NCBI GenBank assembly: GCA_003142635.1
Contig: PLMX01000178.1
Span: forward strand, 921-42,015
Reading direction: 5' to 3'
DNA from: Syntrophaceae bacterium
GTDB lineage: Bacteria > Desulfobacterota > Syntrophia > Syntrophales > UBA2185
DNA length: 41,095 nucleotides
Shown here: positions 5,719-26,495 of the stretch, in pieces
Layout: each line of letters begins with the position of its first letter
Numbering within the stretch: position 1 is the first letter of the stretch
Notes under the pieces: generated by a model
The model's database searches: none
What the model was told of the DNA's origin: nothing
The model's input: only the letters and a program-made list of their open reading frames with translations
Program-made: the position numbers and the translations under genes

Positions 5719-8700
5719 ATGCCTGTTCTCGAACGTAAGCAGTCCGTACTGAAAATCCTGGAACAACTGCGGGGGCTCGATGCACTGAAGGAACTGTTCT
5801 GGACGGAGCTGAATTACGAGCGCGAAAACAAGCCACTCAGCATGCGCGGCTGGCCGGATTCTGCCCGCAAGGCGTTGGTCGATGGCCCCATCCTGTTTGC
5901 GAGCGGGGGCGAGGATAATGCGTTTCATGTGTTGTATTGCCGCCTGGCGTCCGATAGCCTTCAGAGAAACCTTGAGCGGCCCATCGTCAACCAGTTGATC
6001 CGCGAGCATCCGTACTGCCTGTTCGTTTTCTCCGACACAACACAATCCTACTGGCATTTCCTGAACATCAAGTATGACGAGAATGCGGAGCAGCGGCGAC
6101 TTTTCCGCCGGATTACCGTGCGGGCCGAAGGCGGGTTGCGGACGGCCGCTGAGCGGCTGCAGATGCTGGATCTCGTTTCAATTGGGAAAGAACTGTTCAG
6201 CATCCCCGCACTGGAGATTCAAAAACGCCACGATGACGCCTTCGACGTCGAAAAAGTTACCAAAGATTTCTACAAGGAACTCGCCAACTGGTATTTCTGG
6301 GCATTGAAGCACGTTCGTTTTCCCAAGGATGCACCCAAGGAGGCTGACGGGCACGATTATATCAGCGTGATCCGCATGATCACACGGTTGATCTTCTGCT
6401 GGTTCGTGAAGGAAAAGGGGCTGATTTCTGAGGAACTGTTCGATCAGCGCCGCTTGGATAAACTACTCGACGGGTTCGCACCAGACAAGAATGCCGGGAA
6501 GGATTCGGTTTTCTATAAGGCGATCCTGCAAAACATGTTCTTCGCCACGCTGAATACCGAGATGGACAAGCGGGGCTGGGCAAAGGACGAGCAAAACTTC
6601 CTGGCGCACAGTCTATACCGGTATCGGGATCTGTTTCAGGAGCCTGATGCGGTGCTGGCACTGTTTAAGAATATCCCTTTCCTCAACGGCGGCTTGTTCG
6701 AGTGTCTGGACAAGGATCTGGGCGAAAGTGCCAGGCCGCGTTACGTGCGCATTGACGGATTTTCCAGACGGCCGGACAGCCAGCCGGTTGTCCCGGATTT
6801 TCTGTTCTTCGGATCTGAGCGGGAAGAAGACCTCAGCGCGGACTATGGCGACAAGAAGTTCAGGAAGGTCCGGGTGCGCGGGCTTATCCACACCCTTCAA
6901 CGATACCGCTTCACGATTGAGGAAAACACACCCATCGAACAGGAAGTTGCCCTCGATCCGGAGCTTTCCGGCAAGGTGTTCGAGAACCTCCTCGCAGCCT
7001 ATAATCCTGAAACCGGCGCCACGGCCCGCAAACAGACCGGCTCGTTTTACACCCCGCGCGAGATCGTGGATTACATGGTGGACGAGGTGTTGATCGCATA
7101 CCTGAAGGGGAATTTAAACACAGCGAACACGGAGGATACGGAGAAGAAACTAAGGCGGCTGGTGTCGTGGGAGGAAAGCGGCCACGATTTTGACGCCCGG
7201 GAAACCGAAGCGCTGATCGCTGCGATTGACGGGCTGAAGGCGATGGACCCGGCTGTGGGCTCCGGGGCATTCCCGATGGGCATTCTGCACAAGCTCGTGT
7301 TCATCCTGGGCAAGCTTGATCCGCGCAACGAGCGGTGGGAGCAACGGCAAATCCAGCGCGTGCGCGACGCCATCGCCACGGCGGAAAAGATCGAAGACGC
7401 CGCCATCCGCGAGCGGACGGTCAGGGAACTGGAACAGCAGATTGTCGGCATCGAGGAATCGTTCGAGCGCAACGAGCTGGATTATGGACGCAAGCTCTAC
7501 CTGATCGAAAACTGCATTTACGGCGTGGACATACAACCCATCGCCGTTCAAATCGCCAAGATGCGGTTTTTCATTTCGCTGATCGTGGACCAGAGGGTGG
7601 ACCAGGACGCAGCAAACCTCGGCGTGCGCCCATTGCCCAACCTGGAGACCAAGTTCGTCGCCGCCAACACGCTGATCGGGATCGAGAAACCCAAGCAAAT
7701 GCTCTTGCGCAATCCACAGATTGAAGACAAGGAAGCGGAGCTACGCAAGGTGCGGGAGAAACACTTCAACGCCAAGACCCCGGCCAGCAAAGCCAAGTGC
7801 CGGGAGCAGGACAAGAAATTGCGCGGCGAAATCGCCGAACTGCTCAAGCGCGACGGCTGGGGCGACAAGACGGCGAAACAACTTGCCGCTTGGGATCCCT
7901 ACGACCAGAACGCCTCCGCCCCCTTCTTCGATCCGGAGTGGATGTTCGGCGTGCGGGACGGGTTCGACATTACTATTGGCAATCCACCATACGTTCGAGC
8001 AGACGAGCAATCCAACTGGAATCGTCGTCAGCGCGAGAAAATCCTCAACAGCCAAGACTACGAGACGCTTTGGGAAAAGTGGGATCTCTTCGTTCCTTTC
8101 ATTGAGAAGGGCTACAAATTGCTCAGGTCTAACGGCGTTACCACACTCATCGTTTCCGACGCCTTCTGCCACTCCAAATACGCACAGAAACCACAGAACT
8201 GGTTTCTCAAACATGCCCGCATCTTCCGCCTCGACTTTTGTAGTGATCTTCGAATTTTTGATGCCGCCGTTCACAACCTTATTTACTTTTTCCAAAAAGC
8301 CGACGGCGCGCGCAACGTGCCTGAACGCCGAGTTCACCTTGAGGAATTTGGTAACGTCAGCCTCCTGCCTTCTGATGAGCAATCAAAGCTTACCCACCGA
8401 ACGTTCTTCCCGGAGGACCGAGAAGCAAGAGTGGTTAGCGTCCCTGCAAAATCTCTTGGAGAGATTTGCTACATCAGCGTCGGGATGGTCGTTCACGCAG
8501 ATGAGAAAGTAGCGCAAGGCGCGTTTGAGCTTGAGGATTTGGTTTCCGGCCGAAGGGATGCCACGCATCCGCGCCGCTTTGTGGAAGGCAAGCACCTCGA
8601 AAAGTGGCTGCCCGCGACGAACAAGTGGCTTGAATGGGGCACAGAACGAGCACCAAGCCTGTTCAGGCGACCGACGTTTCCCGAACTCTACTCTGTGCCA

Positions 8701-9213
8701 GAGAAGATATTCATTCACCGGACAACAGGTGAGGGACTGCGCAGTTGCTATGATGGTGATCAGACGCTGTGCAACCACACGATCATGGTCTGTCTGCCGT
8801 GGCACGGATTAAAAGGAGTTCGCAATGCATCAATCAAGAAGTCGGCGCGCTACAACTGCGAGCGGCCGCCGCGCCCGGATTTGCCCAAGCGGGAGGAACT
8901 GGAAGCCACCAGCCGCCGCTTTGCCGTGAAATATCTGCTCGGCGTGATGAACTCGACCGTGGCGCGCGATTTCCTCCGCGCCAACCGCCGCAGCAACACC
9001 GACCTTTATCCGGACGACTGGAAAAAACTCCCCATCCCCGACGTGGACTCCGCCGCCCAAGCCCACATCGTGAATTTTGTCTCCCGCATCCTCGATATCA
9101 AAAAGGCCGACCCATCGGCGGACACCTCGGCACTGGAGAAGGAGATCAACCGGATCGTGTATGAGCTGTATGGGCTGGCAGAAGAGGAAATCAGGATAGT
9201 TGAGGAGCAATGA
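5719..9213 (+). CDS. Eco57I-type (type IIG-like) adenine DNA methyltransferase
   Basis: 1164 residues. SAM-binding motif I is DPAVGSGAF (about 510-518), preceded by the entry signature TGSFYTPREIVDYMVDEVL (about 440-458). YGVDIQPIAVQIAKMRF (about 601-617) follows, and the catalytic NPPY lies at about 754-757 (ITIGNPPYVRADEQ), giving N6-adenine methylation. Residues 850-1130 look like a TaqI-like target-recognition domain. The N-terminal 400 residues resemble this family's usual head but show no clear PD-(D/E)xK site, so nuclease activity is uncertain. AAGGGG (5708-5713) supports the ATG. It is the first gene of the island and probably marks self DNA for the helicase/ATPase genes downstream. 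It is clearly GC-richer than those genes. Confidence 0.85.
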   Translation: MPVLERKQSVLKILEQLRGLDALKELFWTELNYERENKPLSMRGWPDSARKALVDGPILFASGGEDNAFHVLYCRLASDSLQRNLERPIVNQLIREHPYCLFVFSDTTQSYWHFLNIKYDENAEQRRLFRRITVRAEGGLRTAAERLQMLDLVSIGKELFSIPALEIQKRHDDAFDVEKVTKDFYKELANWYFWALKHVRFPKDAPKEADGHDYISVIRMITRLIFCWFVKEKGLISEELFDQRRLDKLLDGFAPDKNAGKDSVFYKAILQNMFFATLNTEMDKRGWAKDEQNFLAHSLYRYRDLFQEPDAVLALFKNIPFLNGGLFECLDKDLGESARPRYVRIDGFSRRPDSQPVVPDFLFFGSEREEDLSADYGDKKFRKVRVRGLIHTLQRYRFTIEENTPIEQEVALDPELSGKVFENLLAAYNPETGATARKQTGSFYTPREIVDYMVDEVLIAYLKGNLNTANTEDTEKKLRRLVSWEESGHDFDARETEALIAAIDGLKAMDPAVGSGAFPMGILHKLVFILGKLDPRNERWEQRQIQRVRDAIATAEKIEDAAIRERTVRELEQQIVGIEESFERNELDYGRKLYLIENCIYGVDIQPIAVQIAKMRFFISLIVDQRVDQDAANLGVRPLPNLETKFVAANTLIGIEKPKQMLLRNPQIEDKEAELRKVREKHFNAKTPASKAKCREQDKKLRGEIAELLKRDGWGDKTAKQLAAWDPYDQNASAPFFDPEWMFGVRDGFDITIGNPPYVRADEQSNWNRRQREKILNSQDYETLWEKWDLFVPFIEKGYKLLRSNGVTTLIVSDAFCHSKYAQKPQNWFLKHARIFRLDFCSDLRIFDAAVHNLIYFFQKADGARNVPERRVHLEEFGNVSLLPSDEQSKLTHRTFFPEDREARVVSVPAKSLGEICYISVGMVVHADEKVAQGAFELEDLVSGRRDATHPRRFVEGKHLEKWLPATNKWLEWGTERAPSLFRRPTFPELYSVPEKIFIHRTTGEGLRSCYDGDQTLCNHTIMVCLPWHGLKGVRNASIKKSARYNCERPPRPDLPKREELEATSRRFAVKYLLGVMNSTVARDFLRANRRSNTDLYPDDWKKLPIPDVDSAAQAHIVNFVSRILDIKKADPSADTSALEKEINRIVYELYGLAEEEIRIVEEQ

Positions 9214-9270
9214 CGGAAGGAATGGGAACGGGAGATCAACGAGCGCGTGGCCGTTCTCTATGGGCTATGA
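9214..9270 (+). pseudogene. Relict of a second methyltransferase C-terminus
   Basis: Directly after the TGA of the methyltransferase, the same frame reads EWEREINERVAVLYGL and then a stop at 9268-9270. This matches the tail found just before the real stop (ALEKEINRIVYELYGL), a conserved ending in this family. It looks like the leftover end of a paralogue or an older C-terminus displaced by recombination, at the junction with the RT cassette. Confidence 0.55.
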
Positions 9271-9273
9271 AGA

Positions 9274-11151
9274 ATGAGACGTGACCTGTACAAAATACTA
9301 TGCAATGCAGAAGTCCTGAAGATCGCCGCGAATTACGTCTACGATGACAAGAAGGATGACTTTATTCCCGATGTTTTCCGCAATCAGGATTACATTTTCA
9401 ACCTTCAGGAAAACTTGGAGCGGCTGGCTCAGTCCCTGAAGAATGGCACCTATCGACCACGGCCACTGAAAGAAATTGACGTCCCCAAGAGCGGATTAGC
9501 TGTGCGGCCCGGCAGTGCGCTCGACATTGAAGATCACATCGCCCTCTTTGCCATCGCCTACTTGCTTGCGCCCATCATAGACCGTGTCTTGCCAGAAAGC
9601 GTTTTTCATTTCCGCGTCAAGAAAAAAGGCAAGAGGCCTCATCCCGATAAACTCTTCCAAAACGAAGGTCCCGTCCTGATTCGTAAAGTGTTGCGGAAGA
9701 AGCTTCGGATTTTTGAGGACTGGTACGAAGCATGGCCTGCGTTTGTAGCCGAGGCGCAGAATATTTACGAAAAGGAAGGATTCACCATCATGGTCGAATC
9801 CGACATCAGCGCTTATTTCGAGAACATCAGTCATCCGCTCCTTGCCGACATTCTGCGACAGTATGCCCCGCATCAACTGCGCTTGATCAATCTGCTGATG
9901 GAAATGCTTTCCATCTGGGCAACACCATCCTTGACCGGATACCGTCCGCAGCGTGGCATTCCGCAGGGCAACGAGGTTTCAAGTTGGCTTGGGACGCTCT
10001 ATCTTGTGGAGATGGACATCGAACTGTTGAAGCTTCAGAGGAGGGGATTGATTAGATACGTCCGTTATGTGGACGACATCAAGGTCTTCACGAAGGACCC
10101 AAAGACGGCGCGGTCAGTCATTTTCATGATCAACCGGATTTTGAGGTGTTTGCACCTGAATATGCAGTCCAGCAAAACACAAATCTTTGAAGGTGCTGAT
10201 GTCCGCAAGCAGCTATACGACGAGCGCGTTGAGCAGGTTACAAAGATAATTGATGGCCTTCCCGAAGACCCATCGAAGATCACGCGCACACAGCGGCAGG
10301 ACGCAGAGGCCGCCGTCCGTCCCGCGTTCAAGCGTCACTTGGCCTACAAGCGGGAGATGGAAAAGGAAGACCTTCGACTGTTCAAGAGGACGCTTACGCT
10401 GTTATCGCGCATTCAATCGCCTATGGCCGTCAGGCAGTCGCTTAAGTGGATTTGGAAACAACCCGCCTTGACCGAGAAGGTATCTCGATACCTCTCCAAC
10501 TGGATGGGCCATAAGTCAGTACGGGCCGGAGTGGAAAGCGCTCTGCTGGGTGAAGAAGAACTTTTCGACGCGCAGTATCTTTACCTCTTGCCGATGTTCC
10601 GAAGCTCCACGGTACTGCATCTGAAGCACAAGAGCCCACTCATGCGATTAGGCTGCGGGGGCGCTTATCATTGGGCCGTGCGCGCCGAAGCATTCCTGAG
10701 TCTCATTCTGTTCCCCTTGGACGACCGAGACTTCAATAAGCTCCAACACCGTTACTTCACGGAGACTTCGCCAGCCGTCAAAAAGACGATTCTTACCCTT
10801 TTCCTGAAAGCGCGGGACCGCGTTAAGAAACAGATGTTCGCTGCGACAATTCAAGAACCGGAAGAGGAGACAAACCGTTTTCGCAAATATATCTGGGCTT
10901 TGACATACAGTGCGAAACTCGGCCGACCACATCTTGCGGCGCTAAAGCGGATTGAGAAAGACCCCGCTCGCCTGCTTGCCACTCTTCTTGGTGCGCTTCA
11001 ATCACGCGACATATCGACGTTACGCCTGGTTGGACGGGTCGCTGATGACCGTCTCAAGATACTGCCTTCTGAACTTACGCGCCGCGCTTTTACTCAGGTT
11101 TCAAATGATGCCAAACGTATGATTGAGGACTTGGCATCTCCAAAGAAATGA
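9274..11151 (+). CDS. Reverse transcriptase, Abi/UG-like with long helical C-terminus
   Basis: 625 residues. RT motif A is VESDISAYFENI (Asp177), motif B is RGIPQGNEVSSWLG (about 227-240) and motif C is RYVDDIKVF (YVDD at 265-268), so the catalytic triad is intact. Residues 330-625 have no maturase X or endonuclease domain. They are helical and repeat-like, as in the HEAT/alpha-repeat tails of Abi and UG-class defence RTs. This argues against a group II intron RT or a retron: no msr/msd-like structure was noticed. It starts four bases after the relict methyltransferase tail, and its ribosome-binding site is weak. The TcmP-like and radical SAM genes follow in what looks like one cassette. The product (template and cDNA role) is unknown. 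Confidence 0.8.
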   Translation: MRRDLYKILCNAEVLKIAANYVYDDKKDDFIPDVFRNQDYIFNLQENLERLAQSLKNGTYRPRPLKEIDVPKSGLAVRPGSALDIEDHIALFAIAYLLAPIIDRVLPESVFHFRVKKKGKRPHPDKLFQNEGPVLIRKVLRKKLRIFEDWYEAWPAFVAEAQNIYEKEGFTIMVESDISAYFENISHPLLADILRQYAPHQLRLINLLMEMLSIWATPSLTGYRPQRGIPQGNEVSSWLGTLYLVEMDIELLKLQRRGLIRYVRYVDDIKVFTKDPKTARSVIFMINRILRCLHLNMQSSKTQIFEGADVRKQLYDERVEQVTKIIDGLPEDPSKITRTQRQDAEAAVRPAFKRHLAYKREMEKEDLRLFKRTLTLLSRIQSPMAVRQSLKWIWKQPALTEKVSRYLSNWMGHKSVRAGVESALLGEEELFDAQYLYLLPMFRSSTVLHLKHKSPLMRLGCGGAYHWAVRAEAFLSLILFPLDDRDFNKLQHRYFTETSPAVKKTILTLFLKARDRVKKQMFAATIQEPEEETNRFRKYIWALTYSAKLGRPHLAALKRIEKDPARLLATLLGALQSRDISTLRLVGRVADDRLKILPSELTRRAFTQVSNDAKRMIEDLASPKK

Positions 11152-11182
11152 GAATTCGATGCCGACATAGGATACGAAAGAA

Positions 11183-12310
11183 ATGATTTCAGACTTCTTT
11201 CAAAGCAAGAAACCATGGTCACCTTACAAGGACATGATCCTGGCCTACTACTTGACGCCATACCTGTCCAAAGTCTGTAGCTTGGGAAAACCGGTTGTGG
11301 TGGTTGACTGTTTTGCTGGGCCGGGTCGCTTTGAAGACGGAACAGATGGTTCACCTTTAATCATTTCCAAAGCGGTTCACCAGATCGCGGAAAAAGGAAA
11401 AGCAGTTTCGGCCATATTCATCGAAGAGAAAAGGAAGTACTTCCACCGGTTGCTGGAATCGGTGAAAGATTATCAGAATATTTGCAGTACAAGACATCAA
11501 AACTTTGAGGTCGTCTCCAGGGAAATTGCTGGCATGGGACGCAACAACACGGTTTTCGTCTACATCGACCCTTATGGAATAAAGCCTCTCCGTTTTGACG
11601 CATTGGCTGGGATTTACGCGAACGTAGCGCGTGGTTCAAGCATAGAAGTGTTGTTGAATTTCAATGCTTCTTCTTTGGTTCGCAATGGTCTGGCGGCATT
11701 GAAATACGCACAACAAGACGACACGGAGGAAGAACTGGACAGGATAATGACTCCAGCGGACGTCGATGCAATAGCCGGCGGTACCTATTGGCGTGGAATT
11801 GTGACCAGCGATATTCCGTTCTCTGACAAGGAAGAACATTGCGTATCCGAATATATAGGGATGATGAAAAGGTACTTCGACGAGGTATGCAGCTATGGGA
11901 TTAAGGAAAAATATGAACACACCATCCCGAAATATCGGTTGCTCTTTGGCTCACGACACGAAGATGCTTTTATCCTTATGAACGATGCAATCTGCAACGC
12001 TCGCGACAAGTTTCTGGGGAAACAGCGCGTGGATGGATATCTGTTCGACATGCGAGCAAATGACGAGATTCACGACCCTAACCGTTTGCGCACGGCCATT
12101 GTGGATAGTCTGACAACATCCATGACACGAAAGAAACTGATTGTGTATGCGATGCACAGAGTGTTTGCCGAGTATAAAGAATCGGAATACAAGCGCATGA
12201 TCGGGAGTCTTCTCAGGGACGGAAGCTTCTACTCCAAGTCTGGAAAGACCCGGATCAATGACTACGAAGTATTGTCTCTAAAAACATCTTTCAATGGCAG
12301 GTGTCCATGA
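11183..12310 (+). CDS. TcmP-like three-Cys-motif partner protein
   Basis: 375 residues. VVVVDCFAGPGRF (about 36-48) resembles a Rossmann methyltransferase motif I, and VYIDPYGIKPLRF (about 125-137) resembles motif IV; both are hallmarks of the TcmP family. That family is known for sitting beside proteins with a CxxxCxxC radical-SAM-like motif, and here the next gene has exactly that motif. The 3' end overlaps the next start, so translation is coupled. A role in nucleotide or nucleic-acid modification together with the radical SAM partner is inference; the family's reaction is not established. Confidence 0.75.
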   Translation: MISDFFQSKKPWSPYKDMILAYYLTPYLSKVCSLGKPVVVVDCFAGPGRFEDGTDGSPLIISKAVHQIAEKGKAVSAIFIEEKRKYFHRLLESVKDYQNICSTRHQNFEVVSREIAGMGRNNTVFVYIDPYGIKPLRFDALAGIYANVARGSSIEVLLNFNASSLVRNGLAALKYAQQDDTEEELDRIMTPADVDAIAGGTYWRGIVTSDIPFSDKEEHCVSEYIGMMKRYFDEVCSYGIKEKYEHTIPKYRLLFGSRHEDAFILMNDAICNARDKFLGKQRVDGYLFDMRANDEIHDPNRLRTAIVDSLTTSMTRKKLIVYAMHRVFAEYKESEYKRMIGSLLRDGSFYSKSGKTRINDYEVLSLKTSFNGRCP

Positions 12311-13440
12311 TGATAGGGCATAGAAATAACGCGGTTCGGAAACAGCAGGCAGCGTACGCAGTGGCGAGCGCGAAGCAGGATCATGCTTTGGTGCGGGAAC
12401 TATGGGCTGTCAAAGGGCAGTCGGATCGGTTCCATGTTCAGCGAATCGCCGAGAGATCAGGCCTCCCGGTTAAATGGCTTTCCACGCCGCCTAAGATCAA
12501 TGGTGAGCGGGGTGTGGATAAGCTCATGGAAGAACGGAATGTCCTGTTGCTCCGCGACCGCAAGAGCCCGTTCATCGAACAGTTTCAGCATCCGCTGGGA
12601 CGGTGCGCGAAGTTCTATAAGCTGACGGCCTACAACAACTGCAATTTCTGGTGCGAATACTGTTATCTGTACCTGACTTTTCGAGCTTGCCCGGTGTCAA
12701 CGCATTTTGTGAACTACGATAGGATGTTTAAGGACATAGAGAAGTTTGACAGGCAGAGCATTCCCGACGTCCTTCGAGTACTGAATCTTGGTGAGCTTGG
12801 CGATCCGTTGGCTGTGGATGATATCACCGGACTGTCGGAGCAGCTTGTTCCGTTCATGCCGGCACATGCGCCTCACACGAAGCTGCTGTTCCTGACCAAG
12901 AGCGACTGTGTCCAGAATCTGCTGGAGATGAAGCATGGCGGACAGACAATCGTTTCGTTCAGCGTCAATTCAGACAAGGTGTGGCAGCATCTGGAGCACC
13001 GGACGCCGGCCCCTACTGACCGGTTGAAAGCGGCGCGAAAGGTTCAGGATGCCGGGTATGAGGTGCGTTTGCGAATAGATCCGGTGGTCCGATATTCAAC
13101 GTGGGAAAAAGATTATCGTAGGCTTACGGAGATGATTTTCGATTATGTCGAACCTTCGAGGATCACGATTGGAGAGTACCGACCCGCAGAAGGGCTTTCA
13201 AGCCACATCAAGGCACGCTTTCCGGAATCGTCCCTTCTGAAGGTGAATGGTTCGCTGATTGCCGAGGCTGGGAAACTACGCTATCCGAGGGAATTTAGGA
13301 TCGAGATGTTCCGTACGATTGTGGATGGAATTCGCCGTTGCGATAAGAAGGTTCAGATTGCGCTTTGCAAGGAAACGCCGCAGGTTTGGAAAGCCGTTGG
13401 TTTGGAGGGGAAGGGCCTGTTTTGCAACTGCACCGGATGA
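12301..13440 (+). CDS. SPL-like radical SAM protein (three-Cys-motif partner)
   Basis: 379 residues from the GTG at 12301; an ATG two codons later (12307) is an equally good start. Both overlap the preceding TcmP-like gene by a few bases. Cys114, Cys118 and Cys121 form the CxxxCxxC motif that holds the SAM-cleaving 4Fe-4S cluster (CNFWCEYCY). LGELGDPLAVDD, LFLTKSD, FSVNSDKVW and RLRIDPVV follow the layout of spore-photoproduct-lyase-like radical SAM proteins, suggesting a DNA or nucleotide substrate. A Cys-rich end (FCNCTG) may bind a second cofactor. With the RT and TcmP genes it forms a three-gene module. Confidence 0.75.
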   Translation: MSMMIGHRNNAVRKQQAAYAVASAKQDHALVRELWAVKGQSDRFHVQRIAERSGLPVKWLSTPPKINGERGVDKLMEERNVLLLRDRKSPFIEQFQHPLGRCAKFYKLTAYNNCNFWCEYCYLYLTFRACPVSTHFVNYDRMFKDIEKFDRQSIPDVLRVLNLGELGDPLAVDDITGLSEQLVPFMPAHAPHTKLLFLTKSDCVQNLLEMKHGGQTIVSFSVNSDKVWQHLEHRTPAPTDRLKAARKVQDAGYEVRLRIDPVVRYSTWEKDYRRLTEMIFDYVEPSRITIGEYRPAEGLSSHIKARFPESSLLKVNGSLIAEAGKLRYPREFRIEMFRTIVDGIRRCDKKVQIALCKETPQVWKAVGLEGKGLFCNCTG

Positions 13441-13510: not shown

Positions 13511-13798
13511 ATGGAAGAATTGTTTGCCCCGGCGTTCCGGCGGTTTGTTAAAAAGCAGTCCTTGCCTCTGCAACTGGCCATCCAGGATGAAGTGGACGGT
13601 ATCGGCGACAACCCTGGCATAGGCGAAGAAAAAAAGGGTGACTTGACCGGCTTTCGGGTGCATAAATTCAGGTTCCATCAACAGGAGTATCTGATCGCCT
13701 ATGAAGTAGCGAAGGCGAATCTGATTTTTGTCATGATCGGGACACATGAAAACTTTTATCGTGATCTGAAGAAATATAAAAAGGAGTTTCAGCCATGA
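13511..13798 (+). CDS. RelE/ParE-superfamily toxin
   Basis: A 95-residue basic protein. The C-terminal strands HQQEYLIAYEV...LIFVMIGTHENFYRDLKKY match the RelE/HigB-like type II toxin fold, and the length is typical. If RelE-like, it would cleave mRNA at the ribosome; a ParE-like gyrase target cannot be excluded from sequence alone. Its stop overlaps the antitoxin start (ATGA, 13795-13798). The toxin-first order is as in HigBA. It sits inside the defence island, between the RT cassette and the helicase. Confidence 0.8.
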   Translation: MEELFAPAFRRFVKKQSLPLQLAIQDEVDGIGDNPGIGEEKKGDLTGFRVHKFRFHQQEYLIAYEVAKANLIFVMIGTHENFYRDLKKYKKEFQP

Positions 13799-18303: not shown

Positions 18304-19938
18304 ATGAGCTTCAATGACCAAAACTTCAATTTAATAGACGACTCGTGGATACCCGAAACGACGGCAGAGTGGTTCGCATGGCTTGCACGCGAGGAAGAGA
18401 AGACTCGCAACTCATATCTGGCTAAACCTGCAACATTCATTTCAGAATACATAAAAGAAAAGCAAATCGCCCGCGATTATGAAGGGCGGGAAATTCTGGA
18501 ATTGCTGCAAAATGCAGCAGACCAAGCGCGTGAAAATAATTCTGCTGGTCGGGTTGTGATCGAATTGTTGCCAGACGGGTTAATTGTAGCAAATACTGGT
18601 GCTGCTTTTTCGGTTGGTGGAGTTCAGTCACTCGAAACAACACACCTCAGTCCCAAGTGGCGTAATAGGCGTCATCTCATCGGAAACAAAGGGCTAGGAT
18701 TCCGCTCTATTCTAAACTGGTCATCTTCTCCAATAATTCTCAGTGGCGAACTGAACCTATCCTACTCTCCGCAATATTCTAAACATATCTTGACCAAATT
18801 AATGGACAATCCTGAACTAAAACAGCGAGTCGAAGAAGTGCGTGGGGCAACTGAAGAGCTGGTTGTTCCCTTACTTCCTTTTCCTGGATACACCGAGTCA
18901 GGGCATTTGGATTCCTTTATAAAGACTGATTCGGCAGCATTGATATATTCACAATGCAGAGCTTGGCGGAAGAGAGGCTATGACACCGCATTGGGTATGC
19001 CATTTGACCGACCACATTTCTATAAAGAAGCAAAGGAGCAACTGGAAGCCTTGCGACCTGAGGTACTGTTGTTTGTTGAGTATCTCGTTGAACTGCGGTT
19101 TGTTGCATCCGGTACCGCCGACCGTGTATGGAGGATTGACGGTAATGAAAATCTATCCATGGTAACTGAGAATGATGAACCATTAGGATTGTGGAGAATA
19201 CACCGCAAGTCAGATATAATTCCCGATGACAAGACAGATACTGATCAGAAAGGGCCTCTGGACTATGAAATCGTTGTGGCTATTCCTGATGTCGAAAGTT
19301 TTGGGGAACTTAAACCGTCTCCTCTATTTTCATACTTTCCCACAGAGATAGAGTTGCCACATCCGGTTGTTTGCCATGCAACTCTTGAGTTGAATCAAAG
19401 CCGGAACCACACCCAGCAATGCGATAGCAATACTTATGTTCTCGAACAACTGGCTTTATTTCTTGCTGAAGTAGCAGAGATTCGTTCCAGTCAATATCCA
19501 GAAGGACCCAATGCAGGTTTCAGGTTACTTCTCCCCCTCAAAAGTTACCCTAATGATCTGGTGCGGGAAAAATTTCCTGAACAATTGATTTTGGCCGCAA
19601 GAGAACGGGCCATTGTTCCGACACTGAGCGGCCTACCACTGCGACCCCAAGTCGCCAGGCTTGTACCAGGTGTTGATGTTGTCTGGCTGCCTGCTGCTTC
19701 GTTTCCTGAAGTAGCTTTAATCAGAGATTCAAAGGAAAAAGAGTTTTTTTCTGAGCTGGGCGTCCCACAACTAAGTAATGTGGAATTACGGAAACGTCTT
19801 GTCGAGCTAAAATCTCTATCTATTGAGGAGCGAGCTCTACTGATTTCCGGGCTTATAAAAAATAACATTGAAAAGTCTGTTCATAGCTCTTCCCTTTTGC
19901 TTGACAATAATAGTAACCAAGTTCCAGACTCCGCCTAG
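18304..19938 (+). CDS. Sacsin-like GHKL ATPase, N-terminal part (ends at in-frame TAG)
   Basis: 544 residues. The GHKL ATP-binding fold is clear: N-box EILELLQNAADQA (about 62-75), G1-like LIVANTGAAFS and G2 IGNKGLGFRSIL (about 127-139), as in sacsin N-terminal ATPase-like domains of bacterial defence proteins. The frame stops at TAG (19936-19938), but the same frame stays open for another 2592 bases and encodes the rest of a normal-looking protein. The full gene would be about 1408 codons (18304-22530). The ribosome-binding site before the ATG is weak. This half may still be made as a truncated ATPase, or the gene is disabled. Confidence 0.75.
   Translation: MSFNDQNFNLIDDSWIPETTAEWFAWLAREEEKTRNSYLAKPATFISEYIKEKQIARDYEGREILELLQNAADQARENNSAGRVVIELLPDGLIVANTGAAFSVGGVQSLETTHLSPKWRNRRHLIGNKGLGFRSILNWSSSPIILSGELNLSYSPQYSKHILTKLMDNPELKQRVEEVRGATEELVVPLLPFPGYTESGHLDSFIKTDSAALIYSQCRAWRKRGYDTALGMPFDRPHFYKEAKEQLEALRPEVLLFVEYLVELRFVASGTADRVWRIDGNENLSMVTENDEPLGLWRIHRKSDIIPDDKTDTDQKGPLDYEIVVAIPDVESFGELKPSPLFSYFPTEIELPHPVVCHATLELNQSRNHTQQCDSNTYVLEQLALFLAEVAEIRSSQYPEGPNAGFRLLLPLKSYPNDLVREKFPEQLILAARERAIVPTLSGLPLRPQVARLVPGVDVVWLPAASFPEVALIRDSKEKEFFSELGVPQLSNVELRKRLVELKSLSIEERALLISGLIKNNIEKSVHSSSLLLDNNSNQVPDSA
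19936..19938 (+). other. In-frame amber codon splitting the ATPase/DUF3883 gene
   Basis: CCGCC-TAG-GTT lies in a frame open from 18304 to 22530, just before an eight-T run (19940-19947). Homologous-looking sequence continues immediately after it (VFFAPSTSISPNLPEWISL). TAG is a normal stop for several genes here (helicase, MaoC, both thiolase-region genes, second acyl-CoA dehydrogenase), so recoding is less likely than a nonsense mutation or read error. Confidence 0.85.
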
Positions 19939-22530
19939 GTTTTTTTTGCGCCGAGCACTTCAATATCACCTAACCTTCCTGAATGGATCTCTCTGCGTTT
20001 TCTGCACGATGGCTTGCGTGCTGAACTAATGCGGCAACTGAGGGCACAGGATGTCCGTGATCTACAAGGCAAGCTGTCATCGTTCGGTGTACTGGAATAC
20101 TCACTAGCAAATCTCATACGCCGCTTGGTTGCAGTCGCTAACAGACAAAAGAGGGACAATCAGGATCTTGCCACAAAATTCGATGAGGATGTAAGAGCGA
20201 CCGTCTTCTCTTTATTCCTCTCAGAGAATAAATCGGGTAAATGCCCTGAGTTTCCGGCAATCGCTTCTTTATCTTTACCTACTCAAGCAGGGACGAATGC
20301 GCCAGCAAATGAGCTTTACTTTGGCCACGGTTATGGGACACATGGCAATATTTTGCAGTCCCTTTACGCAAAGAGTCTCGAAAAGCTGGTTGTTGCACCT
20401 GACCGGATGGGGTTGTCCGGGAGTATTGAAGATATAAAAGCCTTTCTTATATGGGTTGGGGTAGCAGAATGGCCAAGGGAGGAATTCTCTGACAAACCTG
20501 ACGATGGATTCTTGAACTACGTCCTGGGGAAGATTCCATATCCATCGAAGTTTGACGATCGCTTATTCGAAACGATGGAAAAAGTTCAAAATCCAACTTT
20601 GAAAAATATACGTTCCGTCGATAGGTTGAAAGAGATACTTGAGCACGCCTCGCCTGCTGCTATTACAGCTTGGTTGGCACTGGACACACGGATGCACCAT
20701 TGGTTAAGGCCTCATACGGACCATGCCCTGCTCACCGCCCGTCGTGAAAGCGACTATAACCGGCGCACCTATCGGAGCACTTTACCTAGCTACCTCCGCT
20801 GGAAAATCGAAAACGTGTCTTGGATACCCAGTGAGAACAGTGAACCACTGAGACCAAGAGATTGTGTATTGGGTCAACGAGCAATTGAGGCTCTTTTCCC
20901 CAGGCCGCCAAAACCGTCGTCTGAACAAATGGAACTATTTGGTATATCTGATTTTGACCTGATTGAAGGCTGGCGTCGGGCTGGAGTACTGACGAGTTTA
21001 GCAGAGCTAGAATTGGAAGACATTTATGCTCGTTTGACGGAATTACCCGAAAGAGACCCAGAAGGCCTATTAGCTAGACCGCTCTACCGTTGGCTTTTGG
21101 ATGCGTCTGATTCGGCAATGGGTAACGGGGCAGCGGCAAGAGAGCGATTCATTAATAGTGGAAAAATGTGGGGAGTACACAAAGAGATATCTGATTACTA
21201 TCCGGTAAAAGCGCTCAGACACGCTGATTCAGAGGGCTTTCCAGCAAGTTTGCTATCACAACTGAAAATAGTACATCTTCCGTATCGTGTCGGTGCAGAT
21301 AAGGTTGAACGAATTTTTGGAGTCAAAGCGATTGACCGCATGGGAATACAGCAGCGTGTTAGAAGTTATCAACTTGTCGCAAATCTAGATCATGATTTCC
21401 AAAAGGCAAAACCGTTTCTTTTTTTATTGAGGACATCCCAGACGAGTCAGACACAATACTTGAAGTCCTTGAAAAACTTATCGCTTAGAATCTGTTCTGA
21501 GTTGATAGCAGTAATACGATACGAAGATCACGAATTCGAATTCATGCCATCGGTTTGGGGATGGTTGATTGAAAGTGATATACTTTACGTCCGTTCCGAT
21601 CCTGCGGAACCTCTCAACATATCCTCTGATCTTCTTGCCGACGCGATCGGTGCAGCGATTGCTTCTATGTTTCGTATCGGAGATGGTGGCGAGTTTGCAA
21701 GAATGTTTCTCTGCAAGGAAAGAGATAGAAAAACCCTTTTGAGAAAGATGCGGGGCGAGACAGCAGATGAGAACATGGAGCAGATTATTGCAGAATTCGG
21801 TATGGTTGATACGACAGCCCGTGTTGCGGCAATGCCAGCGAGCCAAACCATAGATGATCCATCCGTAAAACCTGAATCGTCCAACGATCTTCAGCCGAAC
21901 ACAGAGAACCTTCAAGAAAAGCCAGAAATAGATGATGCCCCATCCTCACCCCTTACAAATGGCGGCCCGCTTATTATTGAATCAGAACCACATAATCCAG
22001 TTAGCGCTAATAGGAAGCAGCCGCTCAGAATACAAAAAACAACAGGTGTGACAAAGCTCACAGTGGTTCATAAAGTAACGGATGGCGCATTTTGTGAGCG
22101 AAAAGCCCTTGAATTTGAAGAGTTAAGTGATCCCCATCGATTCCCTCTATTGGTGAGTCAGATCACTGGCAGCCTCGCGTTTGGGTGCGACATAATAAGC
22201 TTTGTTTCTAATGAAGATCGGGAAGCATTCAAATCTGGTACTAACCGAAACCTCGAAAAAATAATTCGTTTTATAGAAGTCAAAGGCCGCAAGCACGAGA
22301 GCGGTGCCATTGAGTTGAAAGGAAACGAGCTAAATGCCGCTATAGAAAACAAGTCTCGATTCTATATTTATCGTTTATTCAGATCCGGAAATGATGAGTA
22401 TCAGATGAGTATCCTGCAAAATCCTATTGACCAAAAAGAAGCATTGTCATCCTCCGTGTATGTTGACCTGAACCGAGCCAATGAGACGCAGAAATATGTG
22501 CTCACCGGTGGAATATTGGAAACCACTTAA
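19939..22530 (+). pseudogene. C-terminal part of the split ATPase gene, ending in DUF3883
   Basis: 863 codons continue in the same frame after the TAG. The first internal ATG (20014) gives 838 residues but has no ribosome-binding site, so independent translation is doubtful. The last 130 residues are a DUF3883 domain: LEFEELSDPHRFP, then IIRFIEVKGRKHESG and LKGNELNAAIENKSRFYIYRLF. Its E-V-K-G resembles the ExK half of PD-(D/E)xK nucleases, so it may be a nuclease or DNA-binding module gated by the GHKL ATPase. Intact family members are single proteins of about this combined size. Confidence 0.7.
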
Positions 22531-22868: not shown

Positions 22869-23243
22869 TTAACCAATTAGCTTCTTGAGATTCTCCCAGT
22901 TCCATGAGTAAAGCTGACCTGCGTTGGGCACGGCAGTATACTTTCCATCCTTGTAACCGATAACCTGAACGACCCGTATACCTTCATCACGCGCCATCTT
23001 GACCTCTTTAAGAACTCCTGGTGCCTTGTATGTCTGTGGTCCAACCATAACAAGCACAATGTCAGACCGCTTGATCGCGGCCCGTGCTTTATCCTCCCAT
23101 GTCTTCATTGGTGCGGCTTCTTTCAACGAAGTGTCTATTACCTCGAAGGGAGAATCTTGTAGCCTCCCTTGCCCTATCACGAAGTCCTTCAGAACCTTAT
23201 CGTTGTCGAAGTCGAAACTCACGAATACTTTTTTCTTCGCCAT
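22869..23243 (-). CDS. Small ThsB-like TIR-domain protein
   Basis: A 124-residue single-domain protein of ThsB/DUF1863 type: KKVFVSFDFDND at the N-terminus, SDIVLVMVGPQT as the central strand and loop, then APGVLKEVKMA, with Glu80 at the expected NAD-cleaving position. GGAGAGAC precedes the start at suitable spacing. It is the last gene of the minus-strand group after two other TIR genes and the SLOG-patatin gene. In Thoeris, ThsB TIR proteins sense phage and turn NAD+ into a cyclic ADP-ribose-type signal; that role here is inferred from fold and context. Confidence 0.8.
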   Translation of the reverse strand: MAKKKVFVSFDFDNDKVLKDFVIGQGRLQDSPFEVIDTSLKEAAPMKTWEDKARAAIKRSDIVLVMVGPQTYKAPGVLKEVKMARDEGIRVVQVIGYKDGKYTAVPNAGQLYSWNWENLKKLIG

Positions 23244-23345
23244 AGCAGTCTCTCCGATATTATGAATTTTTTAAATTCCTACTTTTATCTAAATTATCGC
23301 TACAAACATGCCTGTTCTCCAATTAAATTCATTCCATCTTCAAAG

Positions 23346-23858
23346 TTAGAGATTTCTAATCGAAACTCCATCCGTCGTTTGGCCCGCAGGAAAAACCTCC
23401 AGCCCCCCTGTAGCACTTGTTAATTGTTTATAAAGCTGGAGATATTCGTTTCCGTACCATCTTCCGGTCTGGTCACTGGTTGGGATAACCAAAATTCTTT
23501 CAAGAGATTTGGATTTATCGGCATAACCTATCTCCCAGGGACACCATCGTGAGGAGGTTGAGTTCGGCGTAGCCAAAAAAAGAAACCAATCGAGACTGAG
23601 GATTCTTTCCTGTATACGTTGAGCCGTTCGCCTGTCGGGCTTCTCTGGCATGGAGTTGTCTTTCCAATCAATATATAACTCCCATCCGTTCTCGTAGAGC
23701 AGGATTTCAAGCCCCGCCGCAAGATCCTGATCGTCATGGCTGTGGCACAGGAATGCAGTCTGCTTTCTTCTCTGGTATGCCTCATCAACCGTTTTCATCC
23801 GCATAACTGTATACGAACGGCGGGCCGCCGCCCTGAGGGAATTCAAAGGTATCGGCAT
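23346..23858 (-). CDS. TIR-domain protein
   Basis: 170 residues. RKQTAFLCHSHDDQDLAAGLE (about 31-51) begins a TIR domain (strand A and AA loop), YIDWKDNSMP is the BB-loop region and SSRWCPWEIGYA (103-114) carries the likely catalytic Glu109. The first 30 residues are a basic extension. AAGGAGGAG before the first ATG favours the full-length start over Met19 or Met21. It differs strongly from the two flanking TIR proteins, so it could respond to a different phage trigger while feeding the same effector. Confidence 0.8.
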   Translation of the reverse strand: MPIPLNSLRAAARRSYTVMRMKTVDEAYQRRKQTAFLCHSHDDQDLAAGLEILLYENGWELYIDWKDNSMPEKPDRRTAQRIQERILSLDWFLFLATPNSTSSRWCPWEIGYADKSKSLERILVIPTSDQTGRWYGNEYLQLYKQLTSATGGLEVFPAGQTTDGVSIRNL

Positions 23859-24133
23859 AAAAAAATCTCCTCCTTTTTTAACCGCCGCAGAGAGCCTTAA
23901 CCCGGCAACGGATGACTACTATGATCCTTTTTATCGGAAAATGAACTTAATTCTGTCTTTTTAAATAATGAATCTTTCCAGATTCACGTTTCTTTTCCAC
24001 AAATGAATATACTTTCGTGTTCTTTTCATGAGATCCGAGGTCGTCTTTAACGTTACCTCGATATTTCAAAATCTCTCACTATTTTCGCTCCATGCGAACT
24101 CAAAACGCTGACGCCTCCGCGACAGGAACAGGG

Positions 24134-24742
24134 TTATCGAGTCTTGGTTATATCGAAGGTGTCAATTTTTTCGCACTTCTCGTATGCGTTTTCTATATAC
24201 TTTGAAGGATCCTTGAGAAAGTCTTCTTCCTCAATTAAAGAAATATAAGATCCACTTAGCTTATCCACCGTCTTACAGCGTTCGCATATATATATAGGAT
24301 CAATCAAATTGTACCTATTTTTAGATATGATCTGGTATACTTTGCTGTTTTCTATTGTGCGAGGCTTACAGCCGTCGTCATAGGGTTTGTACCCAACTAT
24401 CCACCCGTAATCTCCATTCCACTTCATGATTACACCGACAACTCCATTTGTTCTTGATGTCTTGTCTTTACGCGTAATCTCTTTAAGCGAGTATTCGATC
24501 TCCCAGTCTATCCATTTGCTGTTCTTAAGGTTGGGAGATATCACAACAATCGTTACAGACGTGCCGTGCATCATGTCCTTTAAATTCTCCTTGATGTTCT
24601 CCGTAGATGTATCCGTTAGATCCGGGGAATCGCTTGTTTCTCCTTGATAATAGATCGTATCATCCCCCAAAGCCTTAAGAATCTTGTCCCGCAAGCCTTG
24701 CGCCTCACTGTATTTATAGGATATAAATGTTTTTCTTGCCAT
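24134..24742 (-). CDS. ThsB/DUF1863-type TIR protein with C-terminal extension
   Basis: 202 residues. ARKTFISYKYSE opens the TIR-like domain, TSVTIVVISPN (61-71) is the core strand, and NSKWIDWEIEYSL (74-86) holds the likely catalytic Glu81. Residues 130-202 are an extra segment with a CxxC pair (CERC) and a charged tail. A strong AGGAGGA lies about 7 bases before the ATG. It follows the SLOG-patatin gene by 64 bp on the same strand, the closest pairing in the group, so it is the best candidate for that effector's signal maker. Confidence 0.8.
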   Translation of the reverse strand: MARKTFISYKYSEAQGLRDKILKALGDDTIYYQGETSDSPDLTDTSTENIKENLKDMMHGTSVTIVVISPNLKNSKWIDWEIEYSLKEITRKDKTSRTNGVVGVIMKWNGDYGWIVGYKPYDDGCKPRTIENSKVYQIISKNRYNLIDPIYICERCKTVDKLSGSYISLIEEEDFLKDPSKYIENAYEKCEKIDTFDITKTR

Positions 24743-24806
24743 TTATGTTCCTCCTGTTTGTTCTTATGATTCCATTTTGAAAAAGTTTTCTATTTTGTTC
24801 TTCTAA

Positions 24807-26495
24807 CTACGCGAATCTGTCCCACGGAGCGACCGACACTTCATTTAGAAATCTTGACTTCACTGGGCCAAGCGTCTCCGTTTGCAGCGCCGTTTGCTGG
24901 CCGAGATCAGCCAATTCTTCGATTTCCTGTGGTGAATCCAATTTATAGCTCCCAGGCATCGTCATGGTGTTGACTCGTAGAAAGCGTGGCTCCCCTAGTA
25001 GGTGACGTGTGAGTTTTAGCGAAGATTCTTGTTGCACATTCATAAGTAAATCCAGTATCTTTTTCTTCCACAACCAGCCAATAAGCCCAGCTTTCGTCTG
25101 CTTTCGAACAGTGAACGGTTCTTCAGTCGTACCTACGCTCAGCACATCAATTCGCTCCAGTGGGATTCGAAGAAAGCAGGTTGCTTCAACAACAGCAGCC
25201 ATCGCAGGGGAATTTGCCCATACCCCACCATCGAAATAGCTGCTCTCGGCGACCATGTTGGCGATTTTTGCTGCAGTGAAGAACGTTGGTGCTGCCGCAG
25301 TTGCAAGTGCAGCATGTGCGGCTTGTATGTTTGCGTCGGCTGTCAAATCGGGATGATGTGGTGTTCGGAACACGTGAGACACGCCGGCCACGGCATGATA
25401 CGTTGGAATTACTAAGCGGCAACGAGAATCTCGTAGGTATTTCGGTTCACCATCAGGATAGTATGCCTTTTCCAATTCTCGCAGTAATACCTCTTGAGCA
25501 TATTTTGGTTTACAGATATGTCTTAAAATATGCCGCACTCTGCCCCGCAGGCGAGTCACCGGAAAAATAGTAGCCCCCTTCTCTTGATAGAAATCGAGCA
25601 TCTCTTGGCCCGACAGACCGAGCCCTAATCCGATAGCTAGAATTCCGCCAGTCGATGTGCCGGCGATGAGATCAAAGTGGTCTACAATACGGAGATGTGA
25701 CTGACTTTCCCAAGTTGCGAGCGCAGCTGCGGTAAACACACCCTTCAACCCTCCACCATCAAGGGCCAGAATTCTAAATGAAATTCCATCCGAGCCTCGT
25801 CCTCGTACAAGCGGGAGGCGCTCCAGTTGAGCGCAAACCTTTTCAGCGACACTCCTGGCGTCTTCCTCTGCAGATAATCTACGATTCTCGGTCGCATCAA
25901 GGCCATTCTTAAGTTGAGTGAGAAGTATTGGATTCCTTGACAAGAAGTCTTGGGCAACTCCACCGAAGCCACCCAGGAGAAAACAAGGAAGCCCCCGTTT
26001 CATTGCGAGACCAAGCTCAATGGGGATTCCAGCTTGGCCTGCAACCGTATGCCACCACTTGCCTCCAACGACAACCACTGCATCACAGCGTGCCACCATC
26101 CACTTTCGAAGGATTTCCAAACTTTCATCACGGGCTTGGTTTCCTTTGGCTTCAGGTGTTTCATCAACGATTGCCGTTTTTCGCCACTCATCGAGCGAAA
26201 CGACAGAGGGGTCTTTTGACCAAAGGCGGGACACTGCGAGCATCAAAGCGTCTTTCCTACCACCTTGTTCTTGGTGACCCTTGGCTTCTTCCAACAGAAC
26301 TGGCGTGAAGCTAGGGTGGCATCCATGAACAATATGGCCTCCTCGCTGGAATACACAGCGGGAAAATTGGCGCACGAAATCGAGTAGTACCGCACGTTGC
26401 GGCTCTGTGAAGCCCTCCGGAACTGACCCAGATAGCCAGATACGCGCACCGGATAGAGGAACAAAATTGAATTTGTCATGAACATCGTTAGGCAT
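24807..26495 (-). CDS. SLOG-patatin fusion: putative signal-gated phospholipase effector
   Basis: 562 residues. The N-terminal 16-190 region looks like a SLOG nucleotide-sensor domain: ARIWLSGSVPEG, RGGHIVHGCHPS, CDAVVVVGGKW (137-147) and GIPIELGLAMKRGLPCFLLGG. Residues 240-450 are a patatin-like phospholipase with oxyanion loop DGGGLKG (246-252), nucleophile GTSTG (Ser281) and catalytic DGG (Asp422); all key residues are present. No membrane segment was seen. In known systems SLOG domains bind cyclic ADP-ribose-type signals (ThsA) and patatins such as CapV attack membrane lipids once activated. Heading an operon with three TIR genes, it is probably the killer protein of the system. Confidence 0.8.
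   Translation of the reverse strand: MPNDVHDKFNFVPLSGARIWLSGSVPEGFTEPQRAVLLDFVRQFSRCVFQRGGHIVHGCHPSFTPVLLEEAKGHQEQGGRKDALMLAVSRLWSKDPSVVSLDEWRKTAIVDETPEAKGNQARDESLEILRKWMVARCDAVVVVGGKWWHTVAGQAGIPIELGLAMKRGLPCFLLGGFGGVAQDFLSRNPILLTQLKNGLDATENRRLSAEEDARSVAEKVCAQLERLPLVRGRGSDGISFRILALDGGGLKGVFTAAALATWESQSHLRIVDHFDLIAGTSTGGILAIGLGLGLSGQEMLDFYQEKGATIFPVTRLRGRVRHILRHICKPKYAQEVLLRELEKAYYPDGEPKYLRDSRCRLVIPTYHAVAGVSHVFRTPHHPDLTADANIQAAHAALATAAAPTFFTAAKIANMVAESSYFDGGVWANSPAMAAVVEATCFLRIPLERIDVLSVGTTEEPFTVRKQTKAGLIGWLWKKKILDLLMNVQQESSLKLTRHLLGEPRFLRVNTMTMPGSYKLDSPQEIEELADLGQQTALQTETLGPVKSRFLNEVSVAPWDRFA

What the first reader, a model, noticed from the sequence alone, without database searches (positions are those of the whole stretch)
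9274..13440. Reverse transcriptase + TcmP-like + SPL-like radical SAM cassette
An intact non-retron RT with an alpha-helical tail is followed by a TcmP-like protein and a CxxxCxxC radical SAM protein whose genes overlap. TcmP/three-Cys pairs are known partners of unknown function; their link to an Abi/UG-like RT in a defence island would be a new combination to me. A DNA- or nucleotide-modifying step on the RT product is possible.
Basis: partly seen in the sequence, partly recalled or inferred. Interest (0 to 1): 0.82.

Follow-up and report, generated by a model that had tools for sequence, protein, structure and literature searches.

The report
Reverse transcriptase parked in restriction locus
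The three genes are real and intact, but they are two separate defence cargoes (a phage-defence-type reverse transcriptase, and a methyltransferase-like/radical SAM gene pair) sitting side by side in a swappable slot inside a DNA restriction-modification locus, not one conserved three-gene machine.

Summary
In detail: RT 9274-11151, TcmP 11183-12310 and SPL-like radical SAM 12301-13440 are intact, and TcmP and SPL overlap by 10 bp. The RT belongs with the UG21 defence RTs, apart from group II intron RTs. The interpretation as one RT-TcmP-SPL cassette is only partly supported. No other genome examined has the trio. The only close RT relative (L006, 79% identical) has the RT without TcmP or SPL. 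Locus L159 has the same TcmP-SPL pair (84% and 91% identical) with a 619-aa unrelated protein where the RT should be, and the shared DNA begins 7 bp before the TcmP start codon. The interval between them is a swap slot. It holds an RT in the window and L006, Shedu in L072, an Avs3a-like protein in L071, an ABC/OLD-type ATPase in L160 and an unknown in L159, usually followed by TcmP-SPL. Related UG19/UG21 RTs recur in type I R-M loci. There is no room for a cis non-coding RNA. Most likely this is a Class-1-like, protein-primed abortive-infection RT housed in an R-M locus; whether it guards that system is untested.

The parts
5719..9213 (+). Eco57I/type IIG-like adenine-specific DNA methyltransferase (1164 aa), left anchor of the conserved locus; N-terminal ~860 aa conserved, C-terminal target-recognition part swapped between loci
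   Evidence: PF07669 103 bits; PADLOC REase_MTase_IIG 197 bits; 80-86% aa identity to L072/L074 over the N-terminal part only
9214..9270 (+). relic of a second methyltransferase C-terminus (in frame RKEWEREINERVAVLYGL*) ending 3 nt before the RT start codon
   Evidence: translation; 4 of 20000 shuffles match methyltransferase tails as well; a similar leftover tail lies downstream of the methyltransferase in L072
9274..11151 (+). reverse transcriptase, UG21 group, YVDD active site, 625 aa with a long C-terminal tail
   Evidence: PADLOC RT_UG21 337.5 bits; clade with L006 and L022 at 100/99 support, apart from group II-type RTs; 79% identical to L006, dN/dS about 0.08
11183..12310 (+). TcmP (three-Cys-motif partner), predicted Rossmann methyltransferase fold with FAGPG and DPYG motifs
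   Evidence: TIGR04474 102 bits; model and PDB fold matches to methyltransferases incl. RlmJ; core residues of both motifs invariant in an alignment of 6 TcmPs
12301..13440 (+). spore-photoproduct-lyase-like radical SAM protein, CxxxCxxC, overlaps TcmP by 10 bp
   Evidence: PF20903 109.6 bits; 4Fe-4S cysteines and SPL tyrosines kept, SPL catalytic Cys replaced by invariant Glu165
13511..13798 (+). ParE-like toxin
   Evidence: PF15781 86.8 bits
13795..14109 (+). HTH_17 protein, probable antitoxin/regulator; overlaps the toxin gene and ends 3 nt before the helicase
   Evidence: PF12728 31.9 bits; 74% identical relative at the same place in L071
14113..17448 (+). PLD (HKD) plus SNF2-type helicase, probable restriction effector, right anchor of the conserved locus
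   Evidence: PF13091, PF00271; PADLOC C3a139 HKD+Snf2 285.7 bits; 69-88% identical relatives in L006, L071-L074

Best explanation
This is an ATP-dependent restriction-modification locus. A type IIG-like adenine methyltransferase would mark self DNA, and a PLD-SNF2 helicase is the probable restriction effector. The interval between the two genes is a slot into which alternative defence modules are swapped. In this genome the slot holds two independent modules plus a toxin-antitoxin pair. Module 1 is a UG21-group RT. Its most likely mode is Class-1-like: protein-primed DNA synthesis without a cis-encoded RNA template, acting as a second-line abortive-infection defence. Module 2 is a translationally coupled TcmP (Rossmann methyltransferase fold) and SPL-like radical SAM pair, probably a nucleic-acid base-modifying pair. 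Shown here: gene content, slot swapping, purifying selection on the RT, absence of room for a cis ncRNA, and lack of a conserved RT-TcmP-SPL trio. Inferred: restriction by the PLD-SNF2 protein, the RT chemistry, and every defence phenotype.
For: Conserved frame: methyltransferase and PLD-SNF2 helicase flank variable genes in the window, L006, L071, L072, L159 and L160, and more distant pairs are adjacent or nearly so (L075, L077, L079, L080, L086). Slot occupants: RT (window, L006); Shedu SduA_C 98 bits (L072); Avs3a-like 801 bits (L071); AAA_15/AAA_21 ATPase (L160) and a 619-aa protein without Pfam match (L159). Module edges: L159 shares 85.7% DNA identity with window 11176-13440, from 7 nt before TcmP to the SPL stop, and nothing over the RT; L071 and L083 break inside the 3' end of TcmP at 12276. 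Independent exchange: dS window versus L071 is 0.55 for SPL but 1.8 for the helicase. RT: UG21 profile and tree, dN/dS about 0.08. No room for a cis ncRNA: 6-nt gap upstream in L006, methyltransferase relic upstream in the window, 31 nt downstream, no Rfam match. Class 1 UG/Abi RTs have a helical repeat domain and make untemplated DNA, in some cases protein-primed (PMC13174585). With one self-excluded panel, 6 of 15 UG19/UG21-like RTs have R-M genes within 3.5 kb versus 0 of 16 other RTs, one-sided Fisher p 0.007; profile searches add L022 and L028.
Against: Only two loci have this RT in this particular slot. No activity was tested. The RT structure model failed (pLDDT 37), so the tail was not shown to be an alpha-repeat domain and no priming residue was identified. 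The primary paper that assigns UG21 to a class could not be read. Several UG21/UG19 RTs (L024, L026, L029, L030, L096) show no R-M gene nearby. The 15-versus-16 comparison uses a small, non-random sample, and the two groups are of different RT types.
Confidence: 0.62

Rival explanations
1. RM guardian: the RT is functionally tied to the restriction system and fires when restriction is inhibited or phage DNA is modified, as PrrC does inside EcoprrI.
For: RT start lies 3-6 nt after a methyltransferase stop or its relic in both loci; related UG19 RTs sit directly downstream of HsdS in L025, L027 and L098; PrrC is embedded in a type IC R-M locus and activated by R-M inhibition (PMC12707154); AbiA and AbiK have been noted in R-M neighbourhoods (PMC8934634).
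Against: Other slot occupants (Shedu, Avs3a-like) resemble systems not known to need an R-M partner; some UG19/UG21 RTs stand outside R-M loci; co-location may only reflect an insertion hot spot.
Confidence: 0.25
2. One reading: TcmP and the SPL-like enzyme modify the RT's DNA product (or its nucleotides), and the three work as one system.
For: Same strand, 31-nt gap between RT and TcmP, TcmP/SPL overlap; SPL family enzymes act on DNA (known for spore photoproduct lyase).
Against: RT without TcmP-SPL in L006; TcmP-SPL without RT in L072, L079, L081, L082, L085, L159, L160, L161; 1 of 55 TcmP genomes has an RT nearby, the window itself; DNA similarity ends at the TcmP start.
Confidence: 0.06
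3. Class-2-like RT templated by a non-coding RNA encoded elsewhere or inside a coding sequence.
For: DRT2, DRT9 and DRT10 use ncRNA templates (PMC12632851).
Against: No intergenic space either side of the RT in L006, and in the window only 60 nt filled by a methyltransferase relic and 31 nt; no Rfam match.
Confidence: 0.1
4. Remnant of a group II intron or other retroelement.
For: Weak match to the group II RT/maturase model, 114 bits against a cutoff of 300; best PDB sequence match is a group IIC RT.
Against: Full-length UG21 match; tree places it with UG21 at 100/99, apart from the group II-type RTs at 100/100; intact ORF under purifying selection.
Confidence: 0.02

Closest known systems
UG/Abi defence reverse transcriptases, group UG21 (PADLOC RT_UG21), neighbouring UG19
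   Same: Full-length profile match, YVDD, long C-terminal tail, defence-island setting
   Different: 32-40% identical to the next UG21-clade members found (L022, L023); sits in a type IIG-like methyltransferase/PLD-SNF2 helicase locus
AbiA/AbiK/Abi-P2 (Class 1 UG/Abi RTs)
   Same: RT plus helical tail, no cis ncRNA room; AbiK and AbiA have been reported near R-M genes (PMC8934634)
   Different: Sequence group differs; no HEPN domain found; priming residue and activity unknown
TcmP-radical SAM mobile pairs (TIGR04474 with a three-Cys-motif radical SAM)
   Same: TcmP gene directly upstream of, and usually overlapping, a radical SAM gene, also in viral contigs L102-L105, L107 and L108
   Different: Here the partner is SPL-like (PF20903) with a Glu at the SPL catalytic Cys position and extra C-terminal cysteines
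R-M loci with embedded accessory defence genes (EcoprrI/PrrC)
   Same: Unrelated toxin or abortive-infection gene carried between R-M subunit genes
   Different: R-M type is methyltransferase plus PLD-SNF2 helicase, and the slot holds different known defence genes in different genomes
PADLOC HKD+Snf2 (C3a139); DISARM DrmD; NgoAVII/CglI-type PLD-helicase restriction (last one from memory)
   Same: PLD and SNF2 helicase domains with a partner DNA methyltransferase
   Different: DrmD is only a partial match (123 bits), and among the genes profile-scanned here no DrmA or DrmB protein was found

Membership tests
UG21 defence reverse transcriptase | Best full-length match to the UG21 profile rather than another RT group | tested here: met
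   337.5 bits over 10-521 versus 204 for UG19 and 114 for group II maturase
UG21 defence reverse transcriptase | Groups with UG21 RTs in a tree | tested here: met
   Clade window+L006+L022 at 100/99; L096, another UG21-profile match, falls elsewhere on a long branch
UG21 defence reverse transcriptase | Anti-phage activity dependent on the RT active site | not testable with these tools
   Needs phage assays
Class 1 UG/Abi RT | C-terminal alpha-repeat (HEAT-like) domain | tested here: inconclusive
   Tail predicted helical, but model pLDDT 37
Class 1 UG/Abi RT | No cis-encoded ncRNA template; untemplated synthesis | tested here: inconclusive
   No intergenic room and no Rfam match; the activity itself is untested
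TcmP (TIGR04474) | Score above the curated cutoff | tested here: met
   102.3 bits, cutoff 53
TcmP (TIGR04474) | Adjacent radical SAM three-Cys partner gene | tested here: met
   SPL-like gene overlaps by 10 bp; CxxxCxxC
Spore photoproduct lyase (DNA repair enzyme) | Radical SAM CxxxCxxC and conserved tyrosines | tested here: met
   C114/118/121, Y120, Y122 invariant in an alignment of 7 relatives
Spore photoproduct lyase (DNA repair enzyme) | Catalytic H-donor cysteine (Cys140 of G. thermodenitrificans SPL) and equivalog score | tested here: not met
   Aligned position is invariant Glu165 (SPL residue role and numbering from memory); 131.7 bits against cutoff 400
RT-TcmP-SPL three-gene system | Conserved co-occurrence in other genomes | tested here: not met
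   0 other cases
Group II intron RT | Groups with group II RTs; scores over the maturase cutoff | tested here: not met
   114 bits versus 300; separate clade
DISARM | DrmA and DrmB with DrmD or DrmMI | tested here: not met
   Helicase matches DrmD only partially (123 bits against 286 for HKD+Snf2); no DrmA/DrmB protein among the window genes scanned at 4471-26495

The most novel reading that the evidence does not exclude
UG19/UG21 RTs form a recurrent class of restriction-coupled reverse transcriptases: embedded next to the specificity gene of type I, IIG-like and perhaps type III R-M loci, they sense failure or activity of restriction and answer with DNA synthesis, an RT counterpart of PrrC.
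Probability: 0.22. Interest if true: 0.75.

Novelty: new variant of a known kind. Interest (0 to 1): 0.45.

Why it matters
It shows an R-M locus acting as a docking frame for interchangeable defence genes: Shedu, an Avs3a-like protein, an RT or ATPases in the same slot, with precise swap boundaries and methyltransferase-tail scars. That makes it directly testable whether embedded abortive-infection RTs depend on the restriction system that carries them. It also corrects a plausible but unsupported three-gene system before anyone builds on it.

Tried and rejected
RT-TcmP-SPL as a conserved unit: rejected by co-occurrence. Group II intron RT: rejected by profile and tree. ncRNA at 9214-9274 or 11152-11182: the first is a methyltransferase relic, the second 31 nt, and there is no Rfam match. 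Relatives on plasmids, phages and viral contigs: only group II-like RT matches on plasmids, no SPL relative on plasmids, one weak phage match for SPL, no RT or SPL relative in viral contigs; TcmP pairs do occur in viral contigs. RT structure prediction failed for lack of relatives, so no fold search was run on it. The UG/Abi classification paper (PMC9226505) is not held, so the class of UG21 could not be checked at source. A literature search found UG21 in one relevant paper only, with no mention of an R-M link in the passage read.

Full report
Observation. The 625-aa RT carries RGIPQGNEVSS and YVDD and gives a full-length match to PADLOC RT_UG21 (337.5 bits; UG19 is next at 204). TcmP passes its curated cutoff (102 versus 53). 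The radical SAM protein is a member of Pfam SPL (109.6 bits) but far below the equivalog score of spore photoproduct lyase (131.7 versus 400). In an alignment with solved SPL structures the 4Fe-4S cysteines and both neighbouring tyrosines are kept, but the position of the SPL catalytic cysteine is a glutamate. That glutamate is invariant in an alignment of seven relatives, as are four further cysteines, C102, C356, C375 and C377. It is SPL-like in fold family, probably not an SPL in reaction.

RT identity. A maximum-likelihood tree puts the window RT with L006 (Nitrospirota, 79% identical) and L022 (UG21) at 100/99 support, apart from the other RTs of the same genomes, which include group II-type ones. 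L006 against the window gives dN 0.133 and dS 1.7, so the RT is maintained by selection. In the class of the window's organism, 6 of 155 genomes match the UG21 profile at E 1e-40 or better, the window's own included, and the three other species of its genus do not; those three also lack the methyltransferase.

What is conserved. L006 has methyltransferase, RT, a small ORF, then the PLD-SNF2 helicase, without TcmP or SPL. Searching the phylum with the helicase and SPL brought in a series of loci with the same two flanking genes but different contents. L071 has an Avs3a-like 2155-aa protein, then SPL (89%), HTH (74%) and helicase (88%). L072 has a Shedu protein, a different TcmP, SPL (90%), a ParE-like toxin and helicase (88%; toxin). 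L079 has TcmP and SPL without RT. L159 has methyltransferase (73%), a 619-aa protein without Pfam match, TcmP (84%), SPL (91%) and helicase. L160 has an AAA_15/AAA_21 ATPase, TcmP, SPL (87%), further cargo and helicase. L161 has TcmP-SPL directly upstream of a type I HsdM gene. The methyltransferase and helicase are therefore the frame, and RT, Shedu, Avs3a-like and the rest are alternative occupants.

Module edges and scars. DNA similarity between L159 and the window runs from 11176 to 13440 at 85.7%, that is from 7 nt before TcmP to the SPL stop, and is absent over the RT. L071 and L083 become similar at 12276, inside the last bases of TcmP. The 57 nt after the methyltransferase stop read in frame as RKEWEREINERVAVLYGL*, a second methyltransferase tail (4 of 20000 shuffles as similar) ending 3 nt before the RT start; a leftover tail of the same kind lies between the methyltransferase and Shedu in L072. 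Synonymous divergence differs by gene: 0.55 for SPL and 1.8 for the helicase against L071, so the pieces have been exchanged at different times.

Is the trio a unit? TcmP occurs in 55 of 390 genomes of the phylum. Compared with the RT places, only the window's genome has an RT on the same contig. A panel of 23 RTs found none in 28 loci with TcmP, SPL or the helicase, and a TcmP panel found none in 15 RT loci. In IMG/VR contigs TcmP lies directly upstream of, and usually overlaps, a small radical SAM gene with no RT. TcmP-SPL is a self-contained pair. Its TcmP model (core pLDDT about 80-94) has a Rossmann methyltransferase fold, with RlmJ, an rRNA adenine-N6 methyltransferase, among the best PDB matches (TM 0.42 by query), and the FAGPG and DPYG motifs are kept. 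A base-modifying pair is the natural guess, not a result.

RT and restriction. Beyond this slot, UG19 RTs sit next to HsdS in L025, L027 and L098 and next to HsdR in L028, and the UG21 RT of L022 precedes a type III-like methyltransferase. With one self-excluded protein panel, 6 of 15 UG19/UG21-like RTs have R-M genes within 3.5 kb against 0 of 16 other RTs of the same phylum (one-sided Fisher p 0.007). The sample is small and the controls are of other RT types, so this is suggestive. R-M neighbourhoods have been noted before for AbiK and AbiA (PMC8934634), and PrrC is the textbook abortive-infection gene embedded in an R-M locus and fired by its inhibition (PMC12707154).

Mechanism. With 6 nt (L006) or a methyltransferase relic upstream, and 31 nt or a 4-nt overlap downstream, there is no room for a cis ncRNA, and Rfam finds none. 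Class 2 UG RTs studied so far depend on a cis ncRNA, Class 1 ones do not (PMC13174585). I therefore favour Class-1-like, protein-primed synthesis in an abortive defence, housed in but not proven dependent on the R-M locus. The guardian reading is the main rival (0.25).

Verdict. Observation confirmed; RT assignment right; the RT-TcmP-SPL system not supported. The finding becomes a UG21 RT in a swappable defence slot of a methyltransferase/PLD-SNF2 R-M locus: a new variant of a known kind, moderately interesting.

Noticed in passing
window 18304-22530: A TmtA-like gene (PADLOC PDLC03964) is split by one in-frame stop near 19936: the two ORFs match profile positions 3-509 and 540-1145 of 1538 in the same frame; a broken gene or an assembly error.
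   Followed up: partly
window 22869-26495, minus strand: Three TIR/ThsB-like proteins (two strong ThsB matches) next to a patatin-like phospholipase with a SLOG domain (LD_cluster2) and a strong match to phospholipase effector models: a possible Thoeris-like or TIR-signalling system with a phospholipase effector.
   Followed up: no
L098 2869-14448: HsdR, HsdM, a YhcG-like gene, HsdS, RT_UG19 and a full-length DrmD helicase (690 bits) in one apparent operon: a type I R-M/DISARM-like hybrid carrying an RT.
   Followed up: partly
L159 8980-10839: 619-aa protein without any Pfam match in the slot where known defence genes sit in sister loci: a candidate unknown defence gene.
   Followed up: no
L084 980-5300: Degraded version of the locus: methyltransferase remnants, an SPL broken by a stop, and RES-domain and sce7725-family genes in the slot.
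   Followed up: no
L074 8371-9315: IS200-type transposase in the slot beside a truncated methyltransferase that is 86% identical over its first 466 residues.
   Followed up: no
L030 9321-12372: A UG21-profile RT lies next to a protein that looks by eye like a DUF1848-type radical SAM; another RT/radical SAM neighbourhood, possibly chance.
   Followed up: no
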